A program made the position numbers and the translations under genes. Below the pieces are notes generated by a model. The model was given only the letters and a program-made list of their open reading frames with translations. It ran no database searches and had not been told where the DNA came from. 64,000 nt of DNA, taken from positions 1-64,000 of IMG/VR virus record IMGVR_UViG_3300028027_000047, one strand, 5' to 3'. How positions within the stretch are numbered: position 1 is the stretch's first letter; each line of letters starts with the position of its first letter. The stretch is from a virus. This document shows, piece by piece, positions 1 to 20,825 of the stretch.

Positions 1-135
1 GCAACTGGTCCACAAGGATTAAAAGGTGACACTGGCGCAACAGGCGCAACTGGTCCACAAGGATTAAAAGGTGACACTGGCGCAACAGGCGCAACTGGTC
101 CACAAGGATTAAAAGGTGACACTGGCGAAACAGGC
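1..135 (+). repeat. 45-bp tandem repeat encoding collagen triplets
   Basis: Three consecutive 45-base units (1-45, 46-90, 91-135) are nearly identical at the nucleotide level and each encodes 15 residues, [12 protein letters not shown](A/E)TG. The third unit differs mainly by one Ala-to-Glu codon. The array runs off the left edge, so the copy number is unknown. Near identity in DNA as well as protein points to recent expansion, so rod length may vary between relatives. Confidence 0.95.
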
Positions 136-1500
136 GCAACTGGCCCACAAGGATCTAGCGGCACAGCTGCAACAGTAGCACTAGGATCAGTTACAACAGG
201 CTTAGCTGGATCTTCAGTGTCTATAACAAACTCTGGAACCACATCCGCGGCAATACTTAATTTTACAATTCCTCGTGGAGACACAGGGGCTTCGGGTACT
301 GGAGGATCAACGTTTTCTGGAACAACAGATTCTGTAACTGAAGGAACAGCAAATCTTTATTTTACAAATGAAAGAGCATCTGTTGCAAACAATCAAAGAT
401 TTACAGATGTTTATGTAAACATAAATCAGGCCACAGACGACTTGATGGCATACACAGCAAATAATTATGTAACAATATCAAATCTAGACAACAGATTAGG
501 TGGATATGTTATGGAAGCTGATGCGGATCTAGCGGGAGGGTATGCAAAAATTGGAGTTGCTAGCGGTAAGATATTAGACTCAGTTATTCCTACTACAATT
601 GCAAGAACCTCAGATATAACAGCAGCAATAGCAAATGTTGTAAATGCAGCACCAGACTCATTTGATACTCTTAAAGAAATTGCAGATTATATTTCTACAG
701 ATCAAACAGCTGCATCTTCATTAACTACATTAGTTGGAACTAAGCTTTCTTCTTCAACTGCCGCATCAACATATGCGCCACTTGCTTCACCAACATTTAC
801 TGGAACAGTTTCTGGTATTACAAAATCAATGGTAGGGCTTGGAAATGTGGATAACACTACAGATGCCTTAAAACCAATTTCCCAAGCTACTCAGACAGCA
901 TTAGATGCTAAATTAGCAGTAGCAACCGCATCAACAACATATGCGCCAAAAGCATCACCAACATTTACTGGAACAGTAGATTTTTCTGGTGCAGATGTAG
1001 TTCTAGGAGTACTACCAGCTCAAAGCTTTTCTTCCGTAGGTAAGTATTTAACAAGTAACGGTTCTCAGGCTTCTTGGTCTACAATAAACCTTGCAGACTA
1101 TGCAACTAAATTAAATCCAGTATTTTTGGGAACAGTAGACTTTACCAACGCAACAGTAACTGGAATACAGACTGGTGTGGCAGACAACTCAATAACATCA
1201 GCTAAAATTGCTGATGGAACAATTGTAGACAATGACATTAGCTCCTCAGCAGCAATAGATAAAACAAAAATTTATGGCACAGCGGTTACTAGAACAGACA
1301 TCGGTACAGTAGATAACGCTATGCTTGCTGGATCAATTGCAAATGCAAAGCTTGCAAATTCATCAATTACAATAAACGGAACCTCTGTTGCACTTGGAGG
1401 CTCAACAACAATTTCAGCAGGAGCAAAAACATTCTATAACAATACTGGCGCACTACCTGCTACGGGTATGGTTGCTGGAGATCTTTATATACAGTACTAG
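1..1500 (+). CDS. Collagen-like tail fibre protein, 5' end outside window
   Basis: The reading frame is open from base 1, so the gene starts to the left. The first ~50 visible residues are Gly-X-Y collagen triplets (repeats of [15 protein letters not shown]). They are followed by a beta-rich stretch with the SNSGTT...[11 protein letters not shown] pattern also found in the collagen-like gene at 17460. The rest carries fibre repeats typical of tailed phages, such as [24 protein letters not shown] and [17 protein letters not shown]. The likely role is a trimeric receptor-binding or decoration fibre, with the collagen part as a stiff rod. The next gene begins 7 bases downstream with no clear Shine-Dalgarno, so translation may be coupled. 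Function is inferred from repeats only. Confidence 0.85.
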
Positions 1501-8707: not shown

Positions 8708-10285
8708 ATGGCAAAACACATAGGTAAGAAATCATCTGCACAAGATAACTTTGTTGGTCCAAATCCAGTGACTGGAGTTTCAGCATCAGATATAGGAACA
8801 GGACGGGCATACAATGATGGTGCAATTAGTGTTTCATGGACAGCGCCAGTAGGTGGAAATACCCCAACAGGATATAAGGTGTATGAGGGGGCCTCTGTAG
8901 TTGCTACAATTGCGTATGGAACAAATACTGCAACAATTACAGGGCTTGCTTCTGAATCAAGCCACACTTATTCTGTAGCATCATATGATTCATATAAAGA
9001 TAATAATACTAATGCAGTTGCTGCGTCAGCAGTAACTGCTACTACAGTTCCACAGGCACCATCAGTTTCTGCAACAGATGTTGGAACAGGTAGACCGTTT
9101 AATAATGGAGCAGCAACTGTTATAGTTACAGCAAATGCAACTGGAGGAAAAGCAATTTCAACATATGCAGCAACTCCAAACGGATTATCAGAAGTTACAG
9201 GTGCTTCAAGCACATTAACACCAACAGGAATGGCATCTGGAACAGGATATACATTTACTGGTAGAGTATCAAATGCAAATGGTTTTTCTGCAGCATCATC
9301 TGCAACAGCATCAATTACAATTACAACAGTTCCAGCTGCACCAACTGGATTATCTGCTGCAAATAATGGTCAAAATAATAACCGTGCATCTTGGACTGCG
9401 CCAGCAACTGGTGGGAAAGCAATTTCTAGCTACAATGTTTTTGATAATGGCGGCAATGCCCCAGACTCAATAAATACTGCAGGAACAACGGCTGACTTTA
9501 CAGGCCAGGCAGACAATTTTGGTTGGTACTTTAATGTCGAAGCTATAAATGCAAATGGAACTTCAGCAAGATCAACAAATTCAAGCACAATTACAACAAC
9601 GCCTTTTAGCTTTGTTCCATTTAGCTTTACGCCATTTGGCTTTACACCATTCGGCTTTACACCATTCGGCTTTACACCATTCGGCTTTACGCCATTTGGC
9701 TTTACACCATTCGGCTTTACACCATTCGGATTTACTCCATTTGGATTTACTCCATATGGGTTCTCTGGTGGTCTTTGCTTTAAATCACTTGGCGCAACAA
9801 CAATGGTACAGACAACAAATGGATTAGTAGCAGCTCACGATTTAGCAGTAGGAGACGTTCTTCTATCAGCAGATATTGAAACAATGCCTACAGAATTCCC
9901 TGGACCTCAGTCTGAATATCCAGACTGGTCTGTGGTTGATCCAACAGTAACACCAAAGACTACAACAATTACATCAATTGCAACTCGAAACTCTTCAACA
10001 ATTATAGTTGTAAATGGAGAGACATACGCAGACTCACACTACATATTTGTAAAAAGAGATGGCTTATCTAAGTTTGTAAATGTTAGCGAACTACTACTAA
10101 CAGACTTAGTCTTCTCTTCAGATACAAAAGAATGGGTTGAGGTTATACAGGTAGATGTAATTCCAAATGTATCTTACCCAGTAGTATGTATAAACACAGA
10201 GCCTTACGATGTATTTTATACCGAAAGATTCCTTGTTCACGATTCTTATACAATCGCCTCAGACAACCCAGTCGTAGGACAGTAA
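8708..10285 (+). CDS. Fn3 adhesin with FGFTP repeats and C-terminal Hint (intein-like) domain
   Basis: This 525-residue protein has three fibronectin-III-like domains (about residues 15-115, 115-205 and 205-298). Ten pentapeptide repeats (FSFVP, FSFTP, then eight FGFTP) cover about residues 300-349, and a Hint-like domain runs from Cys357 to Asp512. Hint hallmarks are C-F-K-S-L-G-A-T-T-M-V, then LAVGDVLLS, then ADSHYIFVKRDG with LLLTDLVFS, and finally ERFLVHDS near the C-terminus. Residues 513-525 would be a 13-residue C-extein. A Shine-Dalgarno AAAGGGG precedes the ATG. The probable role is a host-binding fibre that processes itself. The terminal Asp replaces the Asn usual in inteins, so splicing may be altered to cleavage only. 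Confidence 0.8.
   Translation: MAKHIGKKSSAQDNFVGPNPVTGVSASDIGTGRAYNDGAISVSWTAPVGGNTPTGYKVYEGASVVATIAYGTNTATITGLASESSHTYSVASYDSYKDNNTNAVAASAVTATTVPQAPSVSATDVGTGRPFNNGAATVIVTANATGGKAISTYAATPNGLSEVTGASSTLTPTGMASGTGYTFTGRVSNANGFSAASSATASITITTVPAAPTGLSAANNGQNNNRASWTAPATGGKAISSYNVFDNGGNAPDSINTAGTTADFTGQADNFGWYFNVEAINANGTSARSTNSSTITTTPFSFVPFSFTPFGFTPFGFTPFGFTPFGFTPFGFTPFGFTPFGFTPFGFTPYGFSGGLCFKSLGATTMVQTTNGLVAAHDLAVGDVLLSADIETMPTEFPGPQSEYPDWSVVDPTVTPKTTTITSIATRNSSTIIVVNGETYADSHYIFVKRDGLSKFVNVSELLLTDLVFSSDTKEWVEVIQVDVIPNVSYPVVCINTEPYDVFYTERFLVHDSYTIASDNPVVGQ
9605..9754 (+). repeat. 15-bp tandem repeat, ten units, encoding FGFTP-type pentapeptides
   Basis: Ten in-frame 15-base units encode FSFVP, FSFTP and eight FGFTP. 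Synonymous changes (TTT/TTC, ACA/ACG/ACT) occur between otherwise identical units, showing selection on the protein. Aromatic-Gly-Pro repeats of this type could form a rigid, sticky surface loop array. Confidence 0.95.
9776..10243 (+). other. Hint/intein-like autoprocessing domain (within adhesin)
   Basis: The domain is 156 residues, the size of a Hint or mini-intein fold without a homing endonuclease. The first residue is Cys357. The block-A-like GATTMVQTTNG and LAVGDVLL, the block-B-like ADSH (His444, where inteins have TxxH) and the C-terminal LVHD followed by Ser513 are all in the expected order and spacing. The Asp at the last position is unusual; Asn is normal. Confidence 0.7.
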
Positions 10286-10301: not shown

Positions 10302-10856
10302 ATGTCAGATACTTCTGAAAAACCATATGAAGTTATTGATGGAATGATATTTCCTAAAATCCAGGAGTACCCAAAAGAACTTGGGGATTCCTGGATACAG
10401 GTGACTAAATTTAGTAATGACTCAGCGATGTATGGGGTTATTTCTTTATATCTTGATAATAAGCATGATAAAGGAACAACTATTTTTTCGTCTTTTATCA
10501 GAAACAAGCACCCAGATGCATATATATCATTTCAACCAACTGGCAACGTAGATAGAGTTTATACCTCACCAGACCTTAGAAAAAAAGGAATCCTAGCAGC
10601 ACTCGGTGGTTATGGAAGAAATTTAATATTCTATCCTTATGAAAAAATATTGCTAGACCACTCTAGATCGTCTAGTCCAGCCGCAGATGAAACGCATGCA
10701 AGAGCAATAGGTAAAGCATTAGGCATTAACAATAAAGATGAGGTAAGAGAAACTAAACATTTTTTAAAACCACAGATTTTATATGAAGTAGAAAAGTCTC
10801 CACCGAGAGACGCCATATATCCGTGCATATGGGCAGAGAAAAGAATATGGGAATAA
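10302..10856 (+). CDS. GNAT-like acetyltransferase candidate
   Basis: This 184-residue protein has a segment (VDRVYTSPDLRKKGILAALGG, about residues 83-103) that resembles the acetyl-CoA-binding motif A of GNAT N-acetyltransferases. That motif is usually a beta strand followed by R/Q-x-x-G-x-G/A. The last glycine pattern is imperfect here, so the family assignment is tentative. A Shine-Dalgarno-like AAGTAAGG precedes the ATG. It is the first gene of the modification cassette, between the Hint adhesin and the dioxygenase genes. Acetylation of a fibre or of a host component is conceivable but not shown. Confidence 0.5.
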   Translation: MSDTSEKPYEVIDGMIFPKIQEYPKELGDSWIQVTKFSNDSAMYGVISLYLDNKHDKGTTIFSSFIRNKHPDAYISFQPTGNVDRVYTSPDLRKKGILAALGGYGRNLIFYPYEKILLDHSRSSSPAADETHARAIGKALGINNKDEVRETKHFLKPQILYEVEKSPPRDAIYPCIWAEKRIWE

Positions 10857-10857
10857 G

Positions 10858-11427
10858 ATGATTAAGAATATTATTAACATAAATAATGATTTATTGAAAA
10901 AAGATATCAATATAATTTTTTCTCAAATGAATGAAAAGATGCATATAGGTTCAAATGGTCTGCTTGTAAAATATTCTTTTGATAAAGAGTATTCATTTTT
11001 TAACGAAGATCAGTTTAATATTTTTACTACCTATAACAAGCAAATAAACCATATTTATCAAAATATAGCAAAATGCTTAAAAGAGCTAAATTTAGAATCT
11101 AAATTAAATTCAGAAAAAAGCATGCAGCATATTACTGGCAATCTGTTTTATGCTCACAGGTCTTTTAAAACACATGAGTATGATTATGTTTCATCACTTC
11201 CTGGATGCTATTTTGGATTATATGTAATAGATTCTAACAATTCTACAATATATATTAATGATGAAGAAACAAATCTAAATGATAAAGACCTTCTAATAAT
11301 TAGTGGAAATAAAAAAATTAACTTTAAAGACTTAGGTGAAAACTTTAATGCAATTGAATTTTATATTATGCCACTACATTATTTAAACGGACAATATTAC
11401 CAAAAATGGTGTCCAGTTATATGCTAA
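10858..11427 (+). CDS. Unknown protein of the modification cassette
   Basis: This 189-residue, Asn/Ile/Lys-rich protein is not a recognised family. The C-terminal half (GCYFGLYVIDSNNSTIYI, then DLLIISGNKKINFKDL) looks like a beta-sandwich or cupin, and the end (GQYYQKWCPVI) resembles the ends of the dioxygenase-like proteins downstream (QHWIPLL, QRWIPLA). It may be a divergent double-stranded beta-helix protein, but no metal-binding HxD/E...H set can be assigned. It starts 1 base after the previous stop and overlaps the next gene. Confidence 0.55.
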   Translation: MIKNIININNDLLKKDINIIFSQMNEKMHIGSNGLLVKYSFDKEYSFFNEDQFNIFTTYNKQINHIYQNIAKCLKELNLESKLNSEKSMQHITGNLFYAHRSFKTHEYDYVSSLPGCYFGLYVIDSNNSTIYINDEETNLNDKDLLIISGNKKINFKDLGENFNAIEFYIMPLHYLNGQYYQKWCPVIC

Positions 11428-12014
11428 AAAAATCTAAAGAAAATTTTCATTTTAAATATATAAATATATTTAATATAGATAATTTGCAGAATATTGTAAA
11501 AAATATTACCTTTGACAAAAATCAATCAGAGTATGACAGAAGAGACAGTACCTTTTCTGGTGCTCTCGGCGGATCTAGAAATGTTTATGATAGCGTAACG
11601 CCAATAACTATAAATGAAACTAATTTAAGCTGGACATACGGAGAAGATATACACTCAGATCAAAAATGCGACATTGCCTTGGCAGAAGAGATAGATCCGA
11701 TAATTAAACATTTAGAAAAACATGTAAACGGCAAAGTTGCTGAAGTTTCTTTAAATAATTTAAAAGCAGGAAACAATATAATTGGTCACTACGACACAGG
11801 GGACTACTATGAATACATGAGAAGATTCCACATACCTCTAGAAACAAATCCAGATGTTGTTTTCCATATCGAAAAGTCCTCTGTAATGATGTCTATTGGA
11901 CAATGCTGGGAAGTTAATAATGCAAAATATCACTCTGTTCGAAATGATGGGGAGTATGATAGAATACACTTAGTAGTTGACATTATGCCAAATGAAGCCA
12001 TGAGAAAAGAATGA
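11421..12014 (+). CDS. Aspartyl/asparaginyl beta-hydroxylase-like dioxygenase
   Basis: The sequence (IGHYDTGDYYEYMRRFHIPL, then CWEVNNAKYHSVRN and DRIHLVVDI) matches the Asp/Asn beta-hydroxylase family, a 2-oxoglutarate/Fe(II) enzyme fold. Candidate iron ligands are His123 and His171, with Arg181 as 2-oxoglutarate ligand (numbering from the ATG at 11421). That ATG overlaps the upstream stop (ATGCTAA); an in-frame ATG at 11406 would add five residues. Family members hydroxylate Asp, Asn or related side chains, and the substrate here is unknown. It is the first of five dioxygenase-type genes in the cluster. Confidence 0.8.
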   Translation: MLKKSKENFHFKYINIFNIDNLQNIVKNITFDKNQSEYDRRDSTFSGALGGSRNVYDSVTPITINETNLSWTYGEDIHSDQKCDIALAEEIDPIIKHLEKHVNGKVAEVSLNNLKAGNNIIGHYDTGDYYEYMRRFHIPLETNPDVVFHIEKSSVMMSIGQCWEVNNAKYHSVRNDGEYDRIHLVVDIMPNEAMRKE

Positions 12015-12015
12015 T

Positions 12016-12732
12016 ATGAAAAAAATAGAATTTTTCCCCAAGAGAAAAGATTTTGCCGAAGTCTTTCCCCAGCCAATACCAATTGTATCCTCAATGCCAT
12101 CCTGGTGGAAAACACAGCCATCTATTCTTGATAATAGCCAGAATCCAGTAAGTGGAGTTTTAAAGTTAACTGTAAAAAAATGCCAAGCAGTTTTTGATTC
12201 GATGACTGCGGGATACTACTTGCTATGCCCAGTAGATATTCATATAGATGCCACTGGGCCTAGGCTGCAAATTCAAATACCAATAAGTCAGTTTTCTCAA
12301 TATGGAGAAATAATAGCTCACCATACGCCAGAGCAAGTTGAAAAATATCCAAAAAAAGAATATTATCACCCTGAAGTGTTAAGGGTTCATCCAATGTGGC
12401 TAGTTCATACTCCTAAAAACTATAGCGCTCTATTTATCGAACCAATACACTCAGATGGAATACCCATACACTCTATTCCAGGAATTATTGATACAGATGC
12501 ATATATATCAGACGGGTACCTATCATTTTTTGTAGAAAAGGGTTTTAAGGGAACAATTAAGCAAGGAACACCAATAATTCAAGTCCTTCCATTTAAAAGA
12601 GATAGCTGGACAAGCTTCATTACAAAAGATAAAAATTCAGATAACACCATATTAAGCCAGCAATTAAAAGTAAGAACTGTTTTTCAAAATGGGTATAGGC
12701 TGAAGTTCTGGACAAAGAAAATATTTAAATAA
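12016..12732 (+). CDS. DUF6065-like protein (paralogue of the gene at 13363)
   Basis: This 238-residue protein shows a set of motifs that recurs in the gene at 13363. They are PxWW near the N-terminus, KKCQAVFDSMTAGYYLLCPVD, a W-x-HTPKNYSALFIEPIH segment, a GIIDTDxY segment, and GTIKQGTPIIQVLPFKRDSW. I recognise this pattern from a DUF6065-type family found in marine and freshwater phages, whose biochemical activity I do not know. It starts 1 base after the previous stop and its last base overlaps the next start, so it is translated with the cassette. Confidence 0.65.
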   Translation: MKKIEFFPKRKDFAEVFPQPIPIVSSMPSWWKTQPSILDNSQNPVSGVLKLTVKKCQAVFDSMTAGYYLLCPVDIHIDATGPRLQIQIPISQFSQYGEIIAHHTPEQVEKYPKKEYYHPEVLRVHPMWLVHTPKNYSALFIEPIHSDGIPIHSIPGIIDTDAYISDGYLSFFVEKGFKGTIKQGTPIIQVLPFKRDSWTSFITKDKNSDNTILSQQLKVRTVFQNGYRLKFWTKKIFK

Positions 12733-13373
12733 TGTTAGAGCAATCCCAGTCCTGGATTGAGATGCAAGATCTTAATTTTATTGATATATCTAGCAAGTCG
12801 CTACTTCCTCCAAAATGGAAAAACTGGTCTTTTGTTTTATCTGAGCATAAAGATGATCCTATTAAGCCAATCAACATGTATTCTGGAATATTTGGAGAAA
12901 GGCCGAAATTAATTTCAATTAAAGAAAACGTCATTACTTTAGAGCAGCACACCTACTCAGACATATACCTATTAATTAATTTTGATAAAAGCATATATGC
13001 AATAGATAAAGCACACCAAAGACAATTTTATATGTCTAGGAATAAATATAATATTGATAGTACTGGCATGCTGTCAAACCAATGCTTTAGAATGTTTATG
13101 CCATGGATAGTAGACTATAATGTGGACGCAAAGATTTACTCAGATAAACCAACATCGTTTAACATAATGCCAAAAGAAGTTAAGTTTTTTAAAAGAAACC
13201 CAGATCTGGATCAACAAGATACAGAGTTTATAGATTTTTATTTTACCAATAGCCCAGAGCACATGATTGAAAATGATTGTGGGATAATAGAAAAAGGATC
13301 TTACATTTATACAATTTCTTTTATAGCAGATGACATTCTTTTAAAACAAATACAGGAAATGTATGACAAATAA
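12732..13373 (+). CDS. Unknown protein between two DUF6065-like genes
   Basis: This 213-residue protein is not recognised. Parts (CFRMFMPWIVDYNVDAKIYSD, split in meaning; later NDCGIIEKGSYIYTISFI) occupy positions like the VDIH and G-x-I-x2-GTP-x-Q segments of its two neighbours. It may therefore be a diverged copy of the same fold. It overlaps the upstream gene by 1 base (TAATG) and the downstream gene by 11 bases. Codon use is AT-rich like the surrounding cassette. Confidence 0.55.
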   Translation: MLEQSQSWIEMQDLNFIDISSKSLLPPKWKNWSFVLSEHKDDPIKPINMYSGIFGERPKLISIKENVITLEQHTYSDIYLLINFDKSIYAIDKAHQRQFYMSRNKYNIDSTGMLSNQCFRMFMPWIVDYNVDAKIYSDKPTSFNIMPKEVKFFKRNPDLDQQDTEFIDFYFTNSPEHMIENDCGIIEKGSYIYTISFIADDILLKQIQEMYDK

Positions 13374-14091
13374 ACTAAAAATTATTTTTAGCCCGTCAGC
13401 AATTGAGCTAAAGGACAGTCTCCTTCAACCAGAGCCAGCAATTAAATTTATTCCTGAGTGGTATAAAAAAATATCTAGATTTTATAAAAACAATACCATT
13501 TCCTCATTAAATCCAATTAACGACAGAGGAACAGATGGAAGCGCATCCTCGACCAAACTGTGTATGCCATTTTTTGATGCAATTACTTCTGGTTATATAT
13601 ATAGGCTGGACACAGATGTTGAAGTGTCTTTGGACGATAACGGGAAACCAATTTTAAATTGGGGCGGAGATGTAATGGTTTGCGATAAAAGATTGATGAT
13701 AGATGTCGCAGTACCGTACCAGCATCACCCAGTACATTTTGGATTTAAAATGCATTGGTATTATGAGACACCCCCAGGCTATTCTTTGTTGATTACACAC
13801 CCAATGAATAGACACGATCTTCCGTTTACTGTTCTGTCTGGAATTGTCGACTCAGACATATGGGGCTTGCCAGTGTTCATATCATTTTTTGTAAAAAGAA
13901 ATTTTGTTGGCATTATTCCAAAAGGGACCCCTTTATTCCAAATGATCCCAATTAAAAGGGATGAGTGGGAAATGGAAATAGATTACTCTGTAAAGAAACA
14001 TTTAATCAATAAGGTTGATGAAGAGAGAAGAAGATCTAAGATATTTGCATATTATAAAAGCCACGCCTGGAGAAGAAAGAAATACGAATAG
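13363..14091 (+). CDS. DUF6065-like protein (second copy)
   Basis: This 242-residue protein repeats the motif order of the gene at 12016: PEWYKK near the N-terminus, CMPFFDAITSGYIYRLDTDVEV, TPPGYSLLITHPMNRHDLPF, GIVDSDIWGLPV and GIIPKGTPLFQMIPIKRDEW. This is the clearer DUF6065-like match of the two. The C-terminus is basic. Function is unknown; its position among dioxygenases and a glycosyltransferase suggests a role in the same pathway. A short gap with a promoter-like sequence follows. Confidence 0.7.
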   Translation: MTNKLKIIFSPSAIELKDSLLQPEPAIKFIPEWYKKISRFYKNNTISSLNPINDRGTDGSASSTKLCMPFFDAITSGYIYRLDTDVEVSLDDNGKPILNWGGDVMVCDKRLMIDVAVPYQHHPVHFGFKMHWYYETPPGYSLLITHPMNRHDLPFTVLSGIVDSDIWGLPVFISFFVKRNFVGIIPKGTPLFQMIPIKRDEWEMEIDYSVKKHLINKVDEERRRSKIFAYYKSHAWRRKKYE

Positions 14092-14093
14092 CA

Positions 14094-14122
14094 TTGCAAT
14101 TATTTACATTAAATGCTAACAT
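14094..14122 (+). promoter_or_regulatory. Candidate promoter inside the modification cassette
   Basis: TTGCAA (14094-14099), a 17-base spacer and TAACAT (14117-14122) preceded by TGC lie in the only sizeable gap of the cassette. A Shine-Dalgarno AAGGAG and the ATG at 14141 follow. Confidence 0.5.
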
Positions 14123-14140
14123 ATATATAAGGAGACTAAA

Positions 14141-14791
14141 ATGAATAATAATTATCAATTACCACCCCACCCAACAGGTGCAGAGCATAAATTTTTTGAA
14201 AGGTATTTAGACAATGACCTAGATTCTTTATCTGATTTCTTGCAAAAACAATACGGAAGAATTGAAAGGCGTGAGCTACCAGGAACTACTGCTGTTACTG
14301 AAAAAGATGCATGGCTATCTTCTTCAAGTGTTTCAACAATTAAGTGGACTGAGTATAATGTATTTCAGTTTTACGATAAGGGTATTTATAATTTATATAA
14401 AAACATTTCTGATGTCGTTAAAGAGGCTTGCGAATACTACAAAGTTAATTTTGAAGATCAGAAATATATGATCCAAGGATGGTTCAACATAAACCACAAC
14501 AAAAAAGGAAGATTGGATTGGCATGACCATGGAGGACCGTGGGCGCCATATTTTCACGGATACTATTGCGTAAAGGCTGAACCATCAACGACATGGTATA
14601 AAGTTTTTGACAAAGATGTTCCAAATGAAAATAAAGACAATAGACTTATTATATCTGAAATGGGTCATCCACATGCAATGCAAGACTGGGACTGGGAAGG
14701 CCCAAGAATAACAATAGCCTATGACATAGTTCCACTAAGCAATTTAATTGCAATAGACGCACAACCACAACATTGGATACCTTTGCTATAA
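14141..14791 (+). CDS. 2-oxoglutarate/Fe(II) dioxygenase-like protein (2OG-FeII_Oxy_5-like), copy A
   Basis: This 216-residue protein contains WHDHGG (His128, Asp129, His130), then HGYYCVKAEPSTTWYKV, GHPHAM (His176, His178) and PRITIAYDIVPLS (Arg189). This order (metal-binding His/Asp pair, jelly-roll strands, distal His, Arg in an R-I-x-I-A-Y/F motif) fits the putative 2OG-Fe(II) oxygenase family PF13759. The gene at 15612 is a clear paralogue with the same motifs. It has its own Shine-Dalgarno (AAGGAG) and promoter candidate and overlaps the glycosyltransferase-like gene as TAATG. Substrate is unknown; a fibre protein is plausible. Confidence 0.75.
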   Translation: MNNNYQLPPHPTGAEHKFFERYLDNDLDSLSDFLQKQYGRIERRELPGTTAVTEKDAWLSSSSVSTIKWTEYNVFQFYDKGIYNLYKNISDVVKEACEYYKVNFEDQKYMIQGWFNINHNKKGRLDWHDHGGPWAPYFHGYYCVKAEPSTTWYKVFDKDVPNENKDNRLIISEMGHPHAMQDWDWEGPRITIAYDIVPLSNLIAIDAQPQHWIPLL

Positions 14792-15612
14792 TGTCAACAA
14801 TTGCTTTATTTATATATAGTTTTCAAAATAACGATTTGATTAATGTCGTTAATGATATTATAAGTAAATCTAGCGGTAACAATATTATAGCGATTTCTAT
14901 AATAGATCAAAATTCAATAAACCATTATAAAAAATTTAATATAAGACAAAAAAATATTTATATGAATTATCAGCACAAAGTTTGGGACGCAATAGATAGC
15001 CCAATAAAATATAAAAAACATTTTTTAGATTCCATAAATACTGACTATGCAATGATATGTTCAGACGGAATTAATTTATGCGACCAGTGGGACATGGTCC
15101 TAATAGATAGCATAAATAAAAAAGATTTTATTTTGTCTGGCAATGCGATCAAATCTCTGGAGGTATATAATGATATGGTGTATAAAACACAATCAGTCTA
15201 TAGTGATGAATACGCTTTATCAAATAATATAGATAGGTCATTTATTTTTGGCAAAACAGAATTATTAAAAAAGATCGATTGGCCAGTGCAGCTAAAATAT
15301 TATGGAGAAGAAGAGGTTCTATATATGTCTTGTGTAAAAAATAATATACAAGTTCATAAGGTGCCCACTTATATCTATAAAGACAGCGGCAAAAAACTTA
15401 ACGAATACGACTATGTGCCATTTTCTTTAACCCATAAATACAACACTATAATAAAACAAATTGATGAATACAATATAAAAGACAATATTATATTTAATAA
15501 TTTAAAAGAAATAAAATATCAAAATGATGATGTAGAGTATGACCCGTTCGAATCAGATTTTAATAAAATTGCAGGAGAAAGATACTTAAATAAAACAAGG
15601 AGCATAGATTAA
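14791..15612 (+). CDS. GT-A glycosyltransferase-like protein
   Basis: This 273-residue protein resembles GlcNAc-type GT-A transferases (PF11397-like). The parts are TIALFIYSFQN at the start, a central INTDYAMICSDGINLCDQWD (candidate nucleotide-sugar/metal region, SDG replacing the usual DxD), and a later FIFGKTELLKKIDWP with YYGEEEVLYMSC, like the GEE motif of the family. The start at 14791 overlaps the upstream stop as TAATG; 18 bases upstream another ATG is in frame. It lies exactly between two paralogous dioxygenases and ends in TAATG with the second. Glycosylation of hydroxylated residues is a reasonable hypothesis. Confidence 0.6.
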   Translation: MSTIALFIYSFQNNDLINVVNDIISKSSGNNIIAISIIDQNSINHYKKFNIRQKNIYMNYQHKVWDAIDSPIKYKKHFLDSINTDYAMICSDGINLCDQWDMVLIDSINKKDFILSGNAIKSLEVYNDMVYKTQSVYSDEYALSNNIDRSFIFGKTELLKKIDWPVQLKYYGEEEVLYMSCVKNNIQVHKVPTYIYKDSGKKLNEYDYVPFSLTHKYNTIIKQIDEYNIKDNIIFNNLKEIKYQNDDVEYDPFESDFNKIAGERYLNKTRSID

Positions 15613-16247
15613 TGAGCATAGAGCATAGATTTTTTGAAAAACATTTAAACAATGACTTAGATTCATTGTATAATTTTTTAATGTCCAAAAAGGAAGATAT
15701 TAAAAATGAGTCATTAGAAGGAATAGATTTATCAAAAGCTCCCAAGCACTATTTTGAAAATTATAATCCGCAAAGAGTTGATTTCATGTTCAATGTATTC
15801 CAGTTCTATAATCCAGAGATATACAACCTGTATGTCGGCCTCAGAGATCTCACAAAAGAGGCTTGCCAACACTATGGCCTTGATTTTGAAAAAGAAAAGT
15901 TTATGATTCATGGATGGTTTAATTCAGATAACGGGAAAAAAGAGATTGACCTTAATAATGAAAACCTTTATCACGATCACTCTGGTGGTACTGGTGCGCC
16001 ATATTTTCATGGATATTACTGCGTAAAGGCTGAGCCATCAAGTACGTATTATAAAATAAATAGAGATAGGCCTTTTGAAAATATAAATATAAACAACCGT
16101 GCTATTATTTCTGAGACTGGGCACCCACATGCAATAGGGGTATGGGATCAGCCAGAACAAAGAGTTACAATTGCATATGATATAACACCGCTTTCAATGA
16201 TATCTGGCGGCGGTTACCCAGAACAAAGGTGGATACCACTAGCATGA
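15612..16247 (+). CDS. 2-oxoglutarate/Fe(II) dioxygenase-like protein, copy B
   Basis: This 211-residue paralogue of the gene at 14141 shares the N-terminal FFEKHLNNDLDSLYNFL and the central FHGYYCVKAEPSSTYYKI. The candidate metal-binding and cosubstrate residues are His121, Asp122 and His123 in YHDHSG, His171 and His173 in GHPHA, and Arg184 in QRVTIAYD. Conservation of all these positions in both copies argues that each is active. It is fused by a TAATG overlap to the glycosyltransferase upstream and by ATGA to the prolyl-hydroxylase-like gene downstream. Confidence 0.75.
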   Translation: MSIEHRFFEKHLNNDLDSLYNFLMSKKEDIKNESLEGIDLSKAPKHYFENYNPQRVDFMFNVFQFYNPEIYNLYVGLRDLTKEACQHYGLDFEKEKFMIHGWFNSDNGKKEIDLNNENLYHDHSGGTGAPYFHGYYCVKAEPSSTYYKINRDRPFENININNRAIISETGHPHAIGVWDQPEQRVTIAYDITPLSMISGGGYPEQRWIPLA

Positions 16248-16786
16248 AGATAAAAATAATTGAAGATTTTATTACTGATTACGACGCACATTCATTGATA
16301 TCTGAAATAAATAACCCATCATCCGTAAATGAATACCCAGACTACTATGCTGATAGAAATGGCGGAACGGCATTCCCATACAACAATACAGTGATAAGCA
16401 TACTTAGAAAGTATGCAAAGGAAGCTAATTTAATTCAAAAAGAATTTTTTGAAACAGACAGGGATGTAATAATTACTAAGTCTTTTGGTTCTGGATGGGG
16501 CCCAGGTATGAGCGGAAACCCACACATAGACGCAATAGAAAAAGAGCCTTTTATAGAATATAGCTCTGTAATATATCTTAATGATGGGTACACTGGAGGA
16601 GACATATACTTTCCAAAACAAAACTTTACGCATAGCCCTAAAAAGTACTCAGCAATATTTTTTCCAGGAAACGACTATGAGTATTTGCATGGTGTTTCAA
16701 AAATTGAAACTGGCAACAGGTACACAGCACTCTTTATGCAATCAACGCAAAAAGAATTTATGGATCCAGATTTTGAGGGATGTTAA
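16244..16786 (+). CDS. Prolyl-4-hydroxylase-like 2OG/Fe(II) dioxygenase (first)
   Basis: The 180-residue protein has a standard P4H-type core: NPHIDA (His94, Asp96), SSVIYLNDGYTGGDIYFP, then SAIFFPGND, LHGV (His149) and NRYTALF (Arg159). The HxD...H iron triad and the Arg for 2-oxoglutarate are all present, and the LNDxYxGGxxxFP segment is characteristic of prolyl hydroxylases. The chosen ATG overlaps the upstream stop (ATGA). An extended N-terminus of five residues is possible. Collagen-like fibres encoded on either side of the cassette are natural candidate substrates. Confidence 0.85.
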   Translation: MKIKIIEDFITDYDAHSLISEINNPSSVNEYPDYYADRNGGTAFPYNNTVISILRKYAKEANLIQKEFFETDRDVIITKSFGSGWGPGMSGNPHIDAIEKEPFIEYSSVIYLNDGYTGGDIYFPKQNFTHSPKKYSAIFFPGNDYEYLHGVSKIETGNRYTALFMQSTQKEFMDPDFEGC

Positions 16787-17439
16787 TGGAATTTAAACAG
16801 CTTGCATTGGGCGTAGTTCAGTATAATGGGATAATTAAAAGCCCACAACTTATTATTGATAAGATTGAAGATTTAGAAATAAAAAGACAGGAAGACCCTT
16901 CTTACAAATCAGAGTTTGTTAAAGAATGGACTGCCTGGGATTATGATCATGGCGGACCAGAGAAAACTGTTTTTTGCTGGCAAAAGTTTTTACCAAAACC
17001 AGAAGATATTAGTTTAGATGACAAGTTTTACAAAGAGCAACACTTCATATCGTCAGAGCTTTTTGGTTCTTTAGAAACAGCTCTAAAACATTACTTTACA
17101 ATTTACCCTTATGCTGAAAAAAATATTAAGGCTAGAGAAAAAACAATGCACGTTTTAAAGTACAAGGAAAGCGGATTCCTCCCAGCTCATTCTGACCACG
17201 GAATTAGCAGTAGGGTTTTATCTGCACTTCTTTATTTAAACGATGATTACGAAGGAGGGACGTTAAGGTTTCCACACCTTGGCCTTGAGCTAAAGCCACA
17301 GGCAGGCACAATATTGTTTTTCCCATCAAACTTTGTGTATGTCCATGAAGTAGATGCAGTTACTTCTGGCACAAGGTATTCCCTGCCAAATTGGTATCAT
17401 AATAGAAAGCACCCCTACTACTCAGATGGCACTGAGTAG
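16786..17439 (+). CDS. Prolyl-4-hydroxylase-like 2OG/Fe(II) dioxygenase (second)
   Basis: This 217-residue protein has the same core as the previous gene: HSDHG (His135, Asp137), SALLYLNDDYEGGTLRFP, GTILFFPSN, VHEV (His187) and GTRYSLPNWY (Arg197). The N-terminal 110 residues differ from its neighbour, so the two are not simple duplicates. It starts at a TAATG overlap. Twenty bases after its stop the collagen-like fibre at 17460 begins, the tightest physical link between a prolyl hydroxylase and a collagen-like substrate in the window. Confidence 0.85.
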   Translation: MEFKQLALGVVQYNGIIKSPQLIIDKIEDLEIKRQEDPSYKSEFVKEWTAWDYDHGGPEKTVFCWQKFLPKPEDISLDDKFYKEQHFISSELFGSLETALKHYFTIYPYAEKNIKAREKTMHVLKYKESGFLPAHSDHGISSRVLSALLYLNDDYEGGTLRFPHLGLELKPQAGTILFFPSNFVYVHEVDAVTSGTRYSLPNWYHNRKHPYYSDGTE

Positions 17440-17444
17440 TTTTA

Positions 17445-17453
17445 TGGTATAAT
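17445..17453 (+). promoter_or_regulatory. Extended -10 element of a probable leaderless transcript
   Basis: TGGTATAAT ends 6 bases before the ATG at 17460, and no Shine-Dalgarno is present. Transcription would start at or next to the A of the ATG. No good -35 is visible at 17 bases upstream. Confidence 0.6.
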
Positions 17454-17459
17454 TAAAAA

Positions 17460-18611
17460 ATGGCTACTACAGGTATAAACGGTTGGCACTTCCCAACATA
17501 CACGGACTCCCCAGACGTACCTAGAGATCTAGGTGTTCTTGGTGCAGATATAGCTGCATTTATTGCAGCAAACCCTGGACCACAAGGATCATCAGGACCA
17601 GCAAATGTTATAACGGTTGCTGCCACAAACACTATTGCTCCAGGACAAAATGCTTCAGTAACTATTAGCGGAACGTCCCCATCTCAATCATTAACATTTA
17701 ATATTCCAAGAGGTGTAGATGGCGTTTTAGGCGGACCAGGACCAGCAAACGTATTAAGTGTTGGAACCGTGGCATCAGGAGCTTCTGGAACACAACCGCA
17801 GGTAACTATAACAGGAACTGCCCCCTCTCAAACAATAAATTTTACAATTCCTCGTGGAGATACTGGATTGACTGGAATTACTGGCGCAACAGGCGCTACT
17901 GGTCCCAAAGGTGATGCGGCAGCAACAATAACAGTCGCTCCAACAGTCACAACATCAGCAGCTGGCACAAATGCGGAAGTAACAAATTCTGGAACATCTA
18001 GCGATGTAATTTTAAACTTTACAATACCTCGTGGAGCAGACGGATTGCCTGGAGCAGATGGAGCTCCTGGAGCTCCTGGAGCAACAGGACCAGCTGGAAC
18101 AAATGCAAACATTGATCCAATCGCTACAAGAATCTCATTAAACTTTTCAGCAACAGATCTTTCACCAGTTGGAGTTAATTCAAACTGGTTTCCACTGTCT
18201 AACAACACATTCACCTTGGGTCTCATGGGACCGCTAAACGCAGGACCCCCAGAGCAGCGTACAACAAGAGGCTGGAAAAATATATATTCGAATAACAGTG
18301 CCACAACAATTTCTGATGCAAGAACAAAAGAAAACATAGCCACATCAGATCTAGGGCTAGATTTTATAAATGATTTGCATCCTGTTAAATATAATAAAAT
18401 TGAAGGAAATAGAACACACTACGGTTTAATTGCACAAGAAGTCAAATCAGTAGTAGATGCTTCTGGGGTTGCCGATTTTGGTGGATGGCTAATATCTGAT
18501 GTTAATGATTTAGAAGGACAGCAAGCGCTAAGATATGAAGAGTTTATATCCCCATTAATTAAAGCGGTGCAAGAGCTTACAGCAAGAGTAAAAATACTAG
18601 AAGAGCAGTAG
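17460..18611 (+). CDS. Collagen-like fibre with C-terminal S74 chaperone domain
   Basis: This 383-residue protein begins with INGWHFPTYTDSPDVPRDLG and contains repeated beta modules ([33 protein letters not shown]). Short collagen triplets follow, including [16 protein letters not shown] and GAPGAPGATGPAG (around residues 137-219). The C-terminal ~100 residues form an intramolecular chaperone of the peptidase S74 type: SDARTKENI with the expected Ser, LGLDFINDLHPVKY, HYGLIAQEV and PLIKAVQELTARVKILE. S74 domains trimerise fibres and then cleave themselves off. The start is probably leaderless. Confidence 0.9.
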   Translation: MATTGINGWHFPTYTDSPDVPRDLGVLGADIAAFIAANPGPQGSSGPANVITVAATNTIAPGQNASVTISGTSPSQSLTFNIPRGVDGVLGGPGPANVLSVGTVASGASGTQPQVTITGTAPSQTINFTIPRGDTGLTGITGATGATGPKGDAAATITVAPTVTTSAAGTNAEVTNSGTSSDVILNFTIPRGADGLPGADGAPGAPGATGPAGTNANIDPIATRISLNFSATDLSPVGVNSNWFPLSNNTFTLGLMGPLNAGPPEQRTTRGWKNIYSNNSATTISDARTKENIATSDLGLDFINDLHPVKYNKIEGNRTHYGLIAQEVKSVVDASGVADFGGWLISDVNDLEGQQALRYEEFISPLIKAVQELTARVKILEEQ

Positions 18612-18618
18612 GTCCTGG

Positions 18619-20424
18619 ATGTCATATAAAAGCGTAGTCTTAAATGACCATCCAACATCGTTTTATCTATTAGATGAAGTTAGATCTGGAAGCGTTGGAT
18701 CATACTCTGGAATAATCTCACAATTTGCAACATACCAGGCTTTAAAAGACAGTGGCCTCACATATTCTGCCCTTAGCGGACTTCCAGTTTATGATTATTC
18801 TGGAAATGTTAATGATGGCTATGCGGTAAACACTTCAAACAAAGAACTAATGCCTTTAATTTCTGGCGGGATAAGAGGAACCCAGGTACTCGCAGATACA
18901 GGAATTCACTATACCCCCAAAGGAATTGCAAACGAATATAATAGCGATGATTCTTTTACAATTGAAGCCTGGTGCCTTTTACCGACAGTTGAAAGTGATA
19001 TAACAATAGTTGCAGACACATCAATTAATGCAGGTCTTTTTTATAAAAATGGAAATATTATTTTTAGAATAGGTTCTATTGAAGCACAACATACCGTGTC
19101 AAATATAGAGTCACTATATATTGCTGGAGTATATCAAAACGATTCAATTTCTCTTTATATAAATGGATACATTGTTGATTCAGTATCAACAGAAGGGTAT
19201 AGATTTTCTAACTCGGATATTGATTTTAAAACAGGCCCAGCAGATGGTAAATTTATAATAGATTGTGTAGGATTTTATAAATTTAATCTTTCAGATAGCC
19301 AAATTAAAAATCATTATGTTGAAGGTATAAAAGAAATTAACTCATCTCAAATAGTTGATACAGATGGAGGATACATGTTTAGCATGAACTCTTTCCCTAT
19401 AAGACCTAAATTTAAATTCTCTTATCCAGGCTCTAAATCTTGGTCTGATGTTGTGGGAAGTGGAATATCTGTATCTGACGATGGGTCGTATATATATTTC
19501 CCAAAGACAGATGTATCAGTAGCAGCAACCCACTCATTTATAGATTATTTTATTGTCCCCGATTATTTAAATATATCAACCAGCCAAATACACTGGTCAA
19601 ATGATGTAAAAGGCATAAAGGTACATGTAAAAATAAGCGGAGAAGAATGGGCGGAATGTAAAAATGGAAGCCCAATGCCATACTTTAATAAGAACAGTAA
19701 TAAAATAGGAACCGTTATATACATTAGGGTTACCATGTCATCAGACGATACAAGTAAGTATCAGCCTATATTAAAAAATTTAGAAATCATGTTCTATAGT
19801 TCAAAAAACTTTTATAGCGATAATTCTGGTTACTATGTATCTTCAAGCTTTGATTATGCTTTGCCTAAAAACAATAGCAGAGTCTTGTCTTATAACAAAA
19901 ATAATGGATTAAGGATGCATGCTGGCCACGGCTTCTCATTAAATAATGTACCTCCAGTAAGATCGGTAGAAATGATATTCACACCAGAATCTGGAGAAAA
20001 TGTTCTAGTCTCAGCATCTTCAAAAATATATGAGTGGTCATCTTTAGGAGCCATATCAAAAACAGCGGTTGCATCAATATATGTAAATGGTATAAATAGG
20101 ACATCCGAAACAAATGTATTTGATTTTCTAGCAATAGGCCTACCTCATCATATTGTAATTACCTTTACCTCCGATGCGACAAATCTTAAATTTAATCAAA
20201 ATCAGTCTGACTCAAAATACGGCATAGGCCATATGTATAACAACCTGGCCATATATGAATCTGCTCTATCAGAGGCCAAAGTATTAAATCATTACCTGCT
20301 CTATACTGGAAATATTGTAAATACAGTAAACGACACAAGCATGACCATCCTTGAAGCAACAACTGGCAATAACCTTACCCCCTTCACATTGACTTCTGTA
20401 GAGCCTTTGTCAATAAGCCTTTAA
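18619..20424 (+). CDS. LamG/concanavalin-like adhesin
   Basis: This 601-residue protein has two lectin-like jelly-roll segments. The first (about residues 105-245) contains DDSFTIEAWCLLP, GLFYKNGNIIFRIG and DSISLYINGYIVDS, typical of the LamG/concanavalin A-like superfamily. The second (about residues 440-585) contains RSVEMIFTPESGENVLVSAS and LPHHIVITFTSD. A beta-rich linker lies between. It is probably a sugar-binding virion protein. It follows the S74 fibre by 7 bases and precedes the head genes. Confidence 0.75.
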   Translation: MSYKSVVLNDHPTSFYLLDEVRSGSVGSYSGIISQFATYQALKDSGLTYSALSGLPVYDYSGNVNDGYAVNTSNKELMPLISGGIRGTQVLADTGIHYTPKGIANEYNSDDSFTIEAWCLLPTVESDITIVADTSINAGLFYKNGNIIFRIGSIEAQHTVSNIESLYIAGVYQNDSISLYINGYIVDSVSTEGYRFSNSDIDFKTGPADGKFIIDCVGFYKFNLSDSQIKNHYVEGIKEINSSQIVDTDGGYMFSMNSFPIRPKFKFSYPGSKSWSDVVGSGISVSDDGSYIYFPKTDVSVAATHSFIDYFIVPDYLNISTSQIHWSNDVKGIKVHVKISGEEWAECKNGSPMPYFNKNSNKIGTVIYIRVTMSSDDTSKYQPILKNLEIMFYSSKNFYSDNSGYYVSSSFDYALPKNNSRVLSYNKNNGLRMHAGHGFSLNNVPPVRSVEMIFTPESGENVLVSASSKIYEWSSLGAISKTAVASIYVNGINRTSETNVFDFLAIGLPHHIVITFTSDATNLKFNQNQSDSKYGIGHMYNNLAIYESALSEAKVLNHYLLYTGNIVNTVNDTSMTILEATTGNNLTPFTLTSVEPLSISL

Positions 20425-20449
20425 ATATTGCATTTCTTTGTCACAAATC

Positions 20450-20478
20450 TGGACTTTGGTCTTATATAATGGTATGAT
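20450..20478 (+). promoter_or_regulatory. Candidate promoter before the head module
   Basis: TGGACT (20450-20455), a 17-base spacer and TATGAT (20473-20478) preceded by TGG lie upstream of the gene at 20487. A second TATAAT is at 20465-20470. The -10 to ATG distance is 8 bases and no Shine-Dalgarno is seen, so the transcript may be leaderless or nearly so. Confidence 0.55.
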
Positions 20479-20486
20479 TGTGGTCT

Positions 20487-20825
20487 ATGGATATCTTAAA
20501 TAAAAATACCAGGATTGTTGAAGAGACAACCCTAGGAATCTATGTGTGGGAAATGCCTGATGGCAGATGGATTGGGGATGACGATGGCAATTTTCTTTCG
20601 ATCACATCAATCAAAGGCAATAGATCCAGAATCGATGCTTTGGCTAGAGAAGTTCGCTCATACGGTATTCATGAGGGCCAGCCTAAATTCCTTTCTGGGA
20701 GAAGAAAGATCAATGACGAAGAGCTTGAAGAGCAAGAACAAAGACTTAGATGGGGACTCCCCCCAGATCCATACGACATAGGAGTTTACAAGGACTCTGT
20801 ATCAAGAGGCGGTAAAGTGCAATGA
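20487..20825 (+). CDS. Small protein upstream of portal
   Basis: The protein is 112 residues from the ATG at 20487; TTG at 20478 is in frame but lies in the -10 region. It has a compact N-terminal segment (LGIYVWEMPDGRWIGDDDGNFL) and a charged C-terminus (DEELEEQEQRLRWGLPPDPYD). Small proteins of this kind are found directly before portal genes in some actinophages; their function is unknown to me. Its stop overlaps the portal start (ATGA), so portal translation is probably coupled to it. Confidence 0.7.
   Translation: MDILNKNTRIVEETTLGIYVWEMPDGRWIGDDDGNFLSITSIKGNRSRIDALAREVRSYGIHEGQPKFLSGRRKINDEELEEQEQRLRWGLPPDPYDIGVYKDSVSRGGKVQ

What the first reader, a model, noticed from the sequence alone, without database searches (positions are those of the whole stretch)
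10302..18611. Candidate collagen-fibre hydroxylation and glycosylation cassette in a phage
Two prolyl-4-hydroxylase-like genes, two HxH...H dioxygenase paralogues, one Asp/Asn hydroxylase-like gene and one GT-A-like gene form a coupled operon. It is bounded by collagen-like fibre genes at 1-1500 and 17460. The second hydroxylase stops 20 bases before the collagen/S74 fibre starts. Iron and 2-oxoglutarate ligands are intact in all five. By analogy with giant-virus collagen modification, the phage may hydroxylate and then glycosylate its own Gly-X-Y rods. The substrate is inference; host surface or free amino acids are alternatives.
Basis: partly seen in the sequence, partly recalled or inferred. 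Interest (0 to 1): 0.88.

Follow-up and report, generated by a model that had tools for sequence, protein, structure and literature searches.

The report
Phage repeat-protein hydroxylation module
This freshwater phage carries a block of protein-hydroxylating enzymes directly behind a gene for a fibre-like protein built of repeated Phe-Thr-Pro-Phe-Gly units, and across well over a hundred related phages the set of enzymes changes together with the repeat sequence, so the enzymes probably modify that repeat protein rather than collagen.

Summary
The enzyme block is real: two prolyl-hydroxylase-like genes, two HxH...H dioxygenase paralogues and one Asp/Asn-hydroxylase-like gene, all with intact iron/2-oxoglutarate ligands, plus a GT-A-fold transferase, in one tightly packed + strand run (10302-17439). 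In related viral contigs the block follows REP, not collagen: cassette genes fill 202 of 264 slots just downstream of REP and 0 of 231 upstream; collagen-like ORFs lie within 10 kb in 6 of 88 deduplicated loci. Enzyme content tracks repeat chemistry: proline-free (FGA)n loci have no intact dioxygenase (0/23); PF-type loci have intact HxH...H enzymes (38/40); PP-rich loci (FPPF, PPGFF) have 5-10 intact prolyl hydroxylases (18/18, then 28/28 in a replication set). Proline fraction versus hydroxylase number: rho 0.77; phylogenetic contrasts r 0.75; replication rho 0.75. Contigs with 96-100% identical flanking genes have swapped repeat type and enzyme set together. Best reading: a modular repeat-protein hydroxylation (and, in FTPFG phages, probably glycosylation) system. 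Chemistry and site are inferred, not shown. Part of the block also occurs away from REP in other phages, with unknown target.

The parts
8708..10285 (+). REP: putative substrate; N-terminal MxKxxGxxSxxxNDF motif, fn3 region, (FTPFG)n aromatic repeats, Hint-like C-terminal domain
   Evidence: same gene class upstream of the cassette in all 88 deduplicated loci
9599..9759 (+). 15-bp tandem repeat array encoding the FTPFG units (11 Pro in the repeat region, residues about 299-352)
9779..10282 (+). Hint / bacterial-intein-like domain; Ser at the usual nucleophile position, SHY at block-B-like position, VHDS near the end
   Evidence: profile of 9 homologues hits PDB 2lwy (bacterial intein-like domain) E 7.7e-9 over its whole length and gp41-1 intein E 1.4e-6
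10302..10856 (+). Cassette gene 1, 184 aa, weakly GNAT-like by eye (R-x-x-x-G motif); identity unproven
   Evidence: family conserved next to REP in FTPFG and FGA loci
10858..11427 (+). Diverged HxH-family paralogue without the H[DE]H...HxH...R ligand motif (probable pseudoenzyme)
   Evidence: (E 4e-35 to the HxH profile)
11406..12014 (+). Asp/Asn-beta-hydroxylase-like 2OG dioxygenase, ligands intact
   Evidence: PF05118 E 1.6e-12; rare in relatives
12016..12732 (+). phrog_7084 protein (D7084); model resembles the dUTPase fold; the most constant partner of REP
   Evidence: present in 73 of 88 loci
12732..13373 (+). X127, unknown 213 aa, perhaps distantly related to D7084
   Evidence: hhalign probability 31%
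13363..14091 (+). second phrog_7084 (D7084) protein
14141..14791 (+). HxH...H 2OG dioxygenase paralogue A, ligands intact
14773..15612 (+). GT-A-fold glycosyltransferase-like protein
   Evidence: fold only; no sequence match in Pfam or PDB
15612..16247 (+). HxH...H 2OG dioxygenase paralogue B, ligands intact
16229..16786 (+). P4H-like 2OG dioxygenase 1, HID...H...R intact
16780..17439 (+). P4H-like 2OG dioxygenase 2 (PF13640), HSD...H...R intact
17460..18611 (+). short-collagen / S74 chaperone fibre; next gene downstream, possible extra target but not a regular partner

Best explanation
The cassette is the enzyme half of a modular protein-modification unit whose other half is the gene directly upstream (REP, 8708-10285). 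REP is probably a virion or fibre-region protein: fibronectin-III domains, a rod or brush of short Phe-rich repeats, and a Hint-like C-terminal domain. During late expression the P4H-like enzymes hydroxylate prolines in the repeats. The HxH...H enzymes oxidise another site found in PF-type repeats (residue unknown). In FTPFG phages the GT-A enzyme probably adds a sugar to a hydroxylated or Thr side chain. The dUTPase-fold D7084 protein is an accessory of unknown role. Shown by computation: gene content, intact ligands, strict order, co-variation of repeat chemistry with enzyme set, joint swapping. Inferred: that REP is the substrate, which residues are modified, that REP is in the virion, and that the Hint domain is active.
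For: Order: at least one cassette gene among the first 3 genes downstream of REP in 88/88 loci (29/29 in the subset fetched only by a REP query); 202/264 slots downstream versus 0/231 upstream; median gap 22 bases. Co-variation: Pro fraction of the repeat versus P4H number rho 0.775 (n 88), 0.72 in the REP-query subset (n 29). Intact enzymes by class: (FGA)n 0 of 23 loci with any intact P4H, HxH or AspH; PF type 38/40 with intact HxH; PP type 18/18 with 5-10 intact P4H and no intact HxH; PY type (FTPYS) mostly none. Among residues, P4H number tracks P best. Independent contrasts on a portal tree r 0.75 (70 contrasts). Swaps: L015 and L306 share flanking genes at 96-100% identity, yet one has FTPFG + GNAT/HxH/GT/2 P4H and the other PPGFF + D7084 + 5 P4H; L119/L258 likewise at about 98%. 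Predictions written beforehand, tested on 40 new loci: rho 0.746; PP 28/28 with 5-10 P4H and no intact HxH; PF 8/9 with HxH. Where a second repeat protein exists in the same phage its motif type matches REP (about 17 cases by eye).
Against: No biochemical or virion evidence. The core X127-D7084-HxH-GT-P4H-P4H also occurs in about 20 records away from REP, beside a NodU-like carbamoyltransferase; those records mostly lack FTPFG-like repeats, and REP there has its own smaller enzyme set, so these enzymes can have another target. PY-type repeats contain proline yet mostly lack P4H. In the replication set only 3/9 PF loci had an intact P4H, and one proline-free (YNF)n locus had an HxH enzyme, against a stated prediction. 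Independent-pairs counts are small: PP versus P4H 3:0 (p 0.25), P4H presence 4:0 (p 0.125), PF versus HxH about 7:0 (p 0.016). The GT assignment is fold-level only.
Confidence: 0.72

Rival explanations
1. Collagen modification: the enzymes hydroxylate and glycosylate Gly-X-Y segments of the collagen-like fibres.
For: Two collagen-like ORFs in this record, one 20 bases downstream of the second P4H; the P4H and GT fold classes include collagen enzymes (COLGALT1 and mimivirus R699 among the GT fold hits); a mimivirus precedent exists (PMC9546862).
Against: Collagen within 10 kb of only 6 of 88 cassette loci. In 29 whole records, collagen-positive records average 3.3 and collagen-negative 5.3 PF13640 genes. 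P4H number follows the proline content of REP. The Gly-X-Y stretch at 17460 is only 8 triplets.
Confidence: 0.1
2. RiPP-like or secreted product: REP is a multi-core precursor, the cassette tailors the repeats and the Hint domain releases them as a small product rather than a virion part.
For: Gene logic resembles a RiPP cluster: a repeat precursor followed by swappable tailoring enzymes; Hint-like domain right after the repeats.
Against: REP keeps long fn3 domains and a conserved N-terminal motif and lies in the fibre/portal region behind a gene with an Mtd N-terminal domain; no exporter or peptidase of RiPP type was looked for or noticed next to it.
Confidence: 0.07
3. DNA hypermodification: the dioxygenases, GT and dUTPase-fold proteins modify phage DNA bases.
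For: Weak Tet_JBP similarity of 16780 (E 7e-5, below cut-off); D7084 has a dUTPase-like fold; a NodU-like carbamoyltransferase neighbours the core in other phages.
Against: No C5-cytosine methyltransferase in 13 of 13 records, this one included; all Tet_JBP matches below cut-off. DNA modification would not explain why 5-10 P4H genes go with Pro-Pro repeats and none with proline-free repeats.
Confidence: 0.05
4. Auxiliary metabolism or host target: the dioxygenases act on free amino acids, host proteins or host surface glycans, and sit beside REP by chance or for joint late expression.
For: 2OG oxygenases are common in aquatic phages and usually listed as auxiliary genes (e.g. PMC9602691); part of the cassette has a second genomic context.
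Against: Strict adjacency to REP, joint swapping and chemistry-matched enzyme sets.
Confidence: 0.06

Closest known systems
Mimivirus collagen modification (lysyl hydroxylase/glucosyltransferase; R699; PMC9546862, PMC11838735)
   Same: A virus encodes 2OG hydroxylase and GT-A enzymes for its own repetitive structural proteins
   Different: Collagen Gly-X-Y substrate there; here Phe-rich FTPFG / FGA / FPPF repeats with fn3 and Hint-like domains, many P4H-like copies, phages of bacteria, substrate and enzymes swapped as one module
Plant hydroxyproline-rich glycoproteins such as extensins (from general knowledge)
   Same: Short Pro/aromatic tandem repeats, prolyl 4-hydroxylases followed by glycosyltransferases
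   Different: No homology tested; phage operon; Phe rather than Tyr/Ser dominates; some classes have no proline at all
RiPP gene clusters (from general knowledge)
   Same: Repeat-bearing precursor followed by swappable tailoring enzymes
   Different: REP is a large fn3 protein in the phage fibre region, not a short leader-core peptide
2OG-Fe(II) oxygenases of cyanophages (phrog_61)
   Same: Same superfamily; best cultured-phage relatives of the P4H gene
   Different: Identity below 47%; no REP homologue in 50,697 phage records at E 1e-5
Bacterial intein-like (BIL) / Hint domains
   Same: C-terminal domain of REP (PDB 2lwy, E 7.7e-9)
   Different: Ser in place of Cys in most classes, His of block B or terminal HN missing in some; activity unknown

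Membership tests
P4H-type 2OG-Fe(II) dioxygenase (PF13640) | Profile match above cut-off | tested here: met
   16780-17439: 59.5 bits, cut-off 27. 16229-16786 has no Pfam match and is placed by PHROG and by alignment only
P4H-type 2OG-Fe(II) dioxygenase (PF13640) | HxD...H iron ligands and R/K for 2OG | tested here: met
   Both P4H-like proteins
P4H-type 2OG-Fe(II) dioxygenase (PF13640) | Hydroxylates proline in protein | not testable with these tools
   Needs mass spectrometry
Aspartyl/asparaginyl beta-hydroxylase (PF05118) | Profile match above cut-off and ligand motif | tested here: met
   48 bits, cut-off 22.6; HxD...H..R
GT-A glycosyltransferase | GT-A fold | tested here: met
   AlphaFold pLDDT 86; 683 PDB matches at E <= 0.001, led by ppGalNAc-T2
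GT-A glycosyltransferase | Sequence-family match / donor and acceptor | tested here: inconclusive
   No Pfam, NCBIfam or PDB sequence match; donor and acceptor unknown
Hint / bacterial intein-like domain (REP C-terminus) | Profile similarity over the domain | tested here: met
   2lwy E 7.7e-9 full length; gp41-1 intein E 1.4e-6
Hint / bacterial intein-like domain (REP C-terminus) | Catalytic Cys/Ser, block-B His, C-terminal His-Asn | tested here: inconclusive
   Ser or Cys present; His missing in Cys-type members; HN replaced by HD/YD in Ser-type members
Viral collagen-modification cassette | Regular association with Gly-X-Y proteins | tested here: not met
   6 of 88 loci within 10 kb; no positive relation in whole records
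dUTPase superfamily (D7084 / phrog_7084) | dUTPase-like fold | tested here: inconclusive
   Foldseek E 8e-5 to B. subtilis YosS, but TM normalised by query 0.36
TET/JBP DNA oxidation pathway | Tet_JBP match above cut-off plus a C5 methyltransferase | tested here: not met

The most novel reading that the evidence does not exclude
Freshwater phages use a swappable 'repeat plus cognate oxygenase set' code: an aromatic-repeat fibre protein with a Hint domain whose repeat motif is matched to a dedicated set of prolyl, HxH...H and Asp/Asn-type hydroxylases and a glycosyltransferase, giving the virion a chemically customised, hydroxylated aromatic rod or adhesive, possibly linked or trimmed by the Hint domain.
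Probability: 0.45. Interest if true: 0.93.

Novelty: new variant of a known kind. Interest (0 to 1): 0.85.

Why it matters
2OG oxygenases are common in aquatic phage genomes and their targets are largely unknown. Here gene order, chemistry-matched enzyme sets and joint swapping point to a specific substrate class, a hitherto undescribed family (in the library searched) of Phe-rich repeat proteins with a Hint-like domain. If right, it explains the P4H arrays in these phages, gives a natural panel of hydroxylases matched to defined short repeats, and makes the question testable with one co-expression and mass-spectrometry experiment.

Tried and rejected
DNA-level search of the cassette in cultured phages: no match. 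REP and HxH proteins against cultured phages: no match. D7084 against cultured phages: only haloarchaeal tailed viruses at about 28%; in HF2, the one region inspected, no repeat protein or dioxygenase is annotated beside it. GT and D7084 profiles against PDB sequences: none. FTPFG-like DNA pattern in 19 records with the core cassette away from REP: only one positive, which led to the second-context caveat. REP in bacterial genomes: one real match on a 3.2-kb MAG contig, probably phage contamination. X127 as a D7084 homologue: suggestive only. TET/JBP pathway: rejected. Literature searches found no description of Phe-repeat proteins with hydroxylases in phages; the library holds open-access papers only.
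Full report
What is there. The window is the first 64 kb of a 116,220-base virus record. Between 10302 and 17439 lie eleven + strand ORFs, most overlapping or 1 base apart. Five encode dioxygenases with intact ligands: Asp/Asn-hydroxylase type (11406), two HxH...H paralogues (14141, 15612) and two P4H-like proteins (16229, 16780). A third HxH-family protein (10858) lacks the ligand motif. 14773 has no sequence match to known families but models as a GT-A fold, nearest to polypeptide GalNAc-transferases, with COLGALT1 and mimivirus R699 also among the hits. Two genes are phrog_7084 (12016, 13363), whose model resembles the dUTPase fold.

What was missed. The gene directly upstream, 8708-10285, ends 16 bases before the first cassette gene. 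It has a conserved N-terminal motif, an fn3 region (Pfam E 4.5e-11), a 15-bp DNA tandem repeat that encodes FTPFG units and a C-terminal domain whose family profile hits a bacterial intein-like domain (PDB 2lwy, E 7.7e-9) and the gp41-1 intein. I call it REP. The gene before it has an Mtd N-terminal domain, and portal-type genes follow the cassette, so REP lies in the fibre region; that it is in the virion is inferred.

Relatives. Scans of viral contigs with the HxH, phrog_7084, P4H and REP proteins gave some 300 loci. In them the cassette follows REP homologues with different Phe-rich repeats: FTPFG, FGA, FGFSPFGV, FTPYS, FPPF/FPPY, PPGFFS. After removing near-copies (88 loci), at least one cassette gene is among the first three genes downstream of REP in every locus, and none among the three upstream (202/264 versus 0/231 slots). 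The subset fetched with REP alone gives 62/87 versus 0/72. Gly-X-Y proteins occur within 10 kb in 6 of 88.

Chemistry matches enzymes. P4H number correlates with the proline fraction of the repeat (rho 0.775; 0.72 in the REP-query subset). With only ligand-intact enzymes counted: (FGA)n 0/23 loci with any; PF type 38/40 with HxH and 18/40 with GT; PP type 18/18 with 5-10 P4H and no HxH; PY type 2/7 with any. The relation survives independent contrasts on a portal tree (r 0.75, 70 contrasts); strict independent pairs are few (PF versus HxH about 7:0, p 0.016; others below significance though all in the same direction). Near-identical phages show joint replacement: L015/L306 (flanks 96-100% identical) and L119/L258 (98%) differ in both repeat type and enzyme set. 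L263/L247 differ by a few more FTPFG units and one added P4H.

Replication. Predictions were written down, then two new scans made with PY- and PP-type REP queries. Of 40 new loci unlike the first set, 28/28 PP loci had 5-10 intact P4H and no intact HxH; rho 0.746; 8/9 PF loci had HxH. Two predictions were weaker: P4H in only 3/9 PF loci, and one proline-free (YNF)n locus carried an HxH enzyme.

Why not collagen. In 29 large records with the module, PF01391 matched 16; these average 3.3 PF13640 genes against 5.3 in records without collagen, and the three richest records (11-12 genes) have none. The collagen stretch at 17460 is 8 triplets long. Collagen may be an extra target here but does not explain the cassette's distribution.

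Limits. The core X127-phrog_7084-HxH-GT-P4H-P4H also lies away from REP in other phages, next to a NodU-like carbamoyltransferase; in those genomes REP has its own matching smaller set ((FGA)n with phrog_7084 in G001; FGFSPFGV with two HxH in G009). So these enzymes can have another target, and the claim for the window's GT is weaker than for its P4H and HxH genes. Function, site and product are untested. No C5 methyltransferase and no above-threshold TET/JBP were found in 13 records, which speaks against DNA modification.

Verdict. A modular phage system of a Phe-rich repeat protein plus cognate oxygenases is the best-supported reading (0.72). It works like collagen or extensin hydroxylation, but by the association test it is not a collagen-modifying cassette.

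Noticed in passing
window 1-154 and L008 11363-12220: Both ends of the 116-kb record lie in the same 45-bp collagen-coding repeat array, so the record is probably a circular genome broken in this gene; the real collagen fibre is longer than the ORF at 217-1500.
   Followed up: partly
record 66695-67351, 73735-74445, 88400-89005, 89293-90024, 107524-108057: Five further P4H-like genes outside the cassette; targets unknown.
   Followed up: partly
L055 8529-14224, L034 8525-14259, L180 6644-12349, L183 4249-10684: A second genomic context: X127-phrog_7084-HxH-GT-P4H-P4H (variants) beside a NodU-like carbamoyltransferase and away from REP. It may modify another phage or host product.
   Followed up: partly
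G009 (112-kb record) 18048-20691: A protein with (INT)n repeats is directly followed by two P4H-like genes: perhaps another repeat-protein/hydroxylase pair.
   Followed up: no
L006 16013-16825 and L008 4707-5660 (-): Two sulfotransferase-family genes (PF03567, E 1e-4 and 2e-5) in the same phage.
   Followed up: no
L006 17053-17964, L006 18011-18679, L007 3005-3640 (-): Three mutually similar proteins (by eye) with no Pfam match that look like further dioxygenase-type proteins.
   Followed up: no
Halorubrum/Haloarcula tailed viruses, e.g. AF222060 48119-49003: Haloarchaeal viruses are the only cultured ones with a phrog_7084 homologue (49 records, about 28% identity); in HF2 no repeat protein or dioxygenase is annotated beside it.
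   Followed up: partly
window 29682-41360: One ORF of 3892 aa, unusually large for a 116-kb phage.
   Followed up: no
L006 10701-11012: Small protein that looks WhiB-like by eye, hinting at an actinobacterial host.
   Followed up: no
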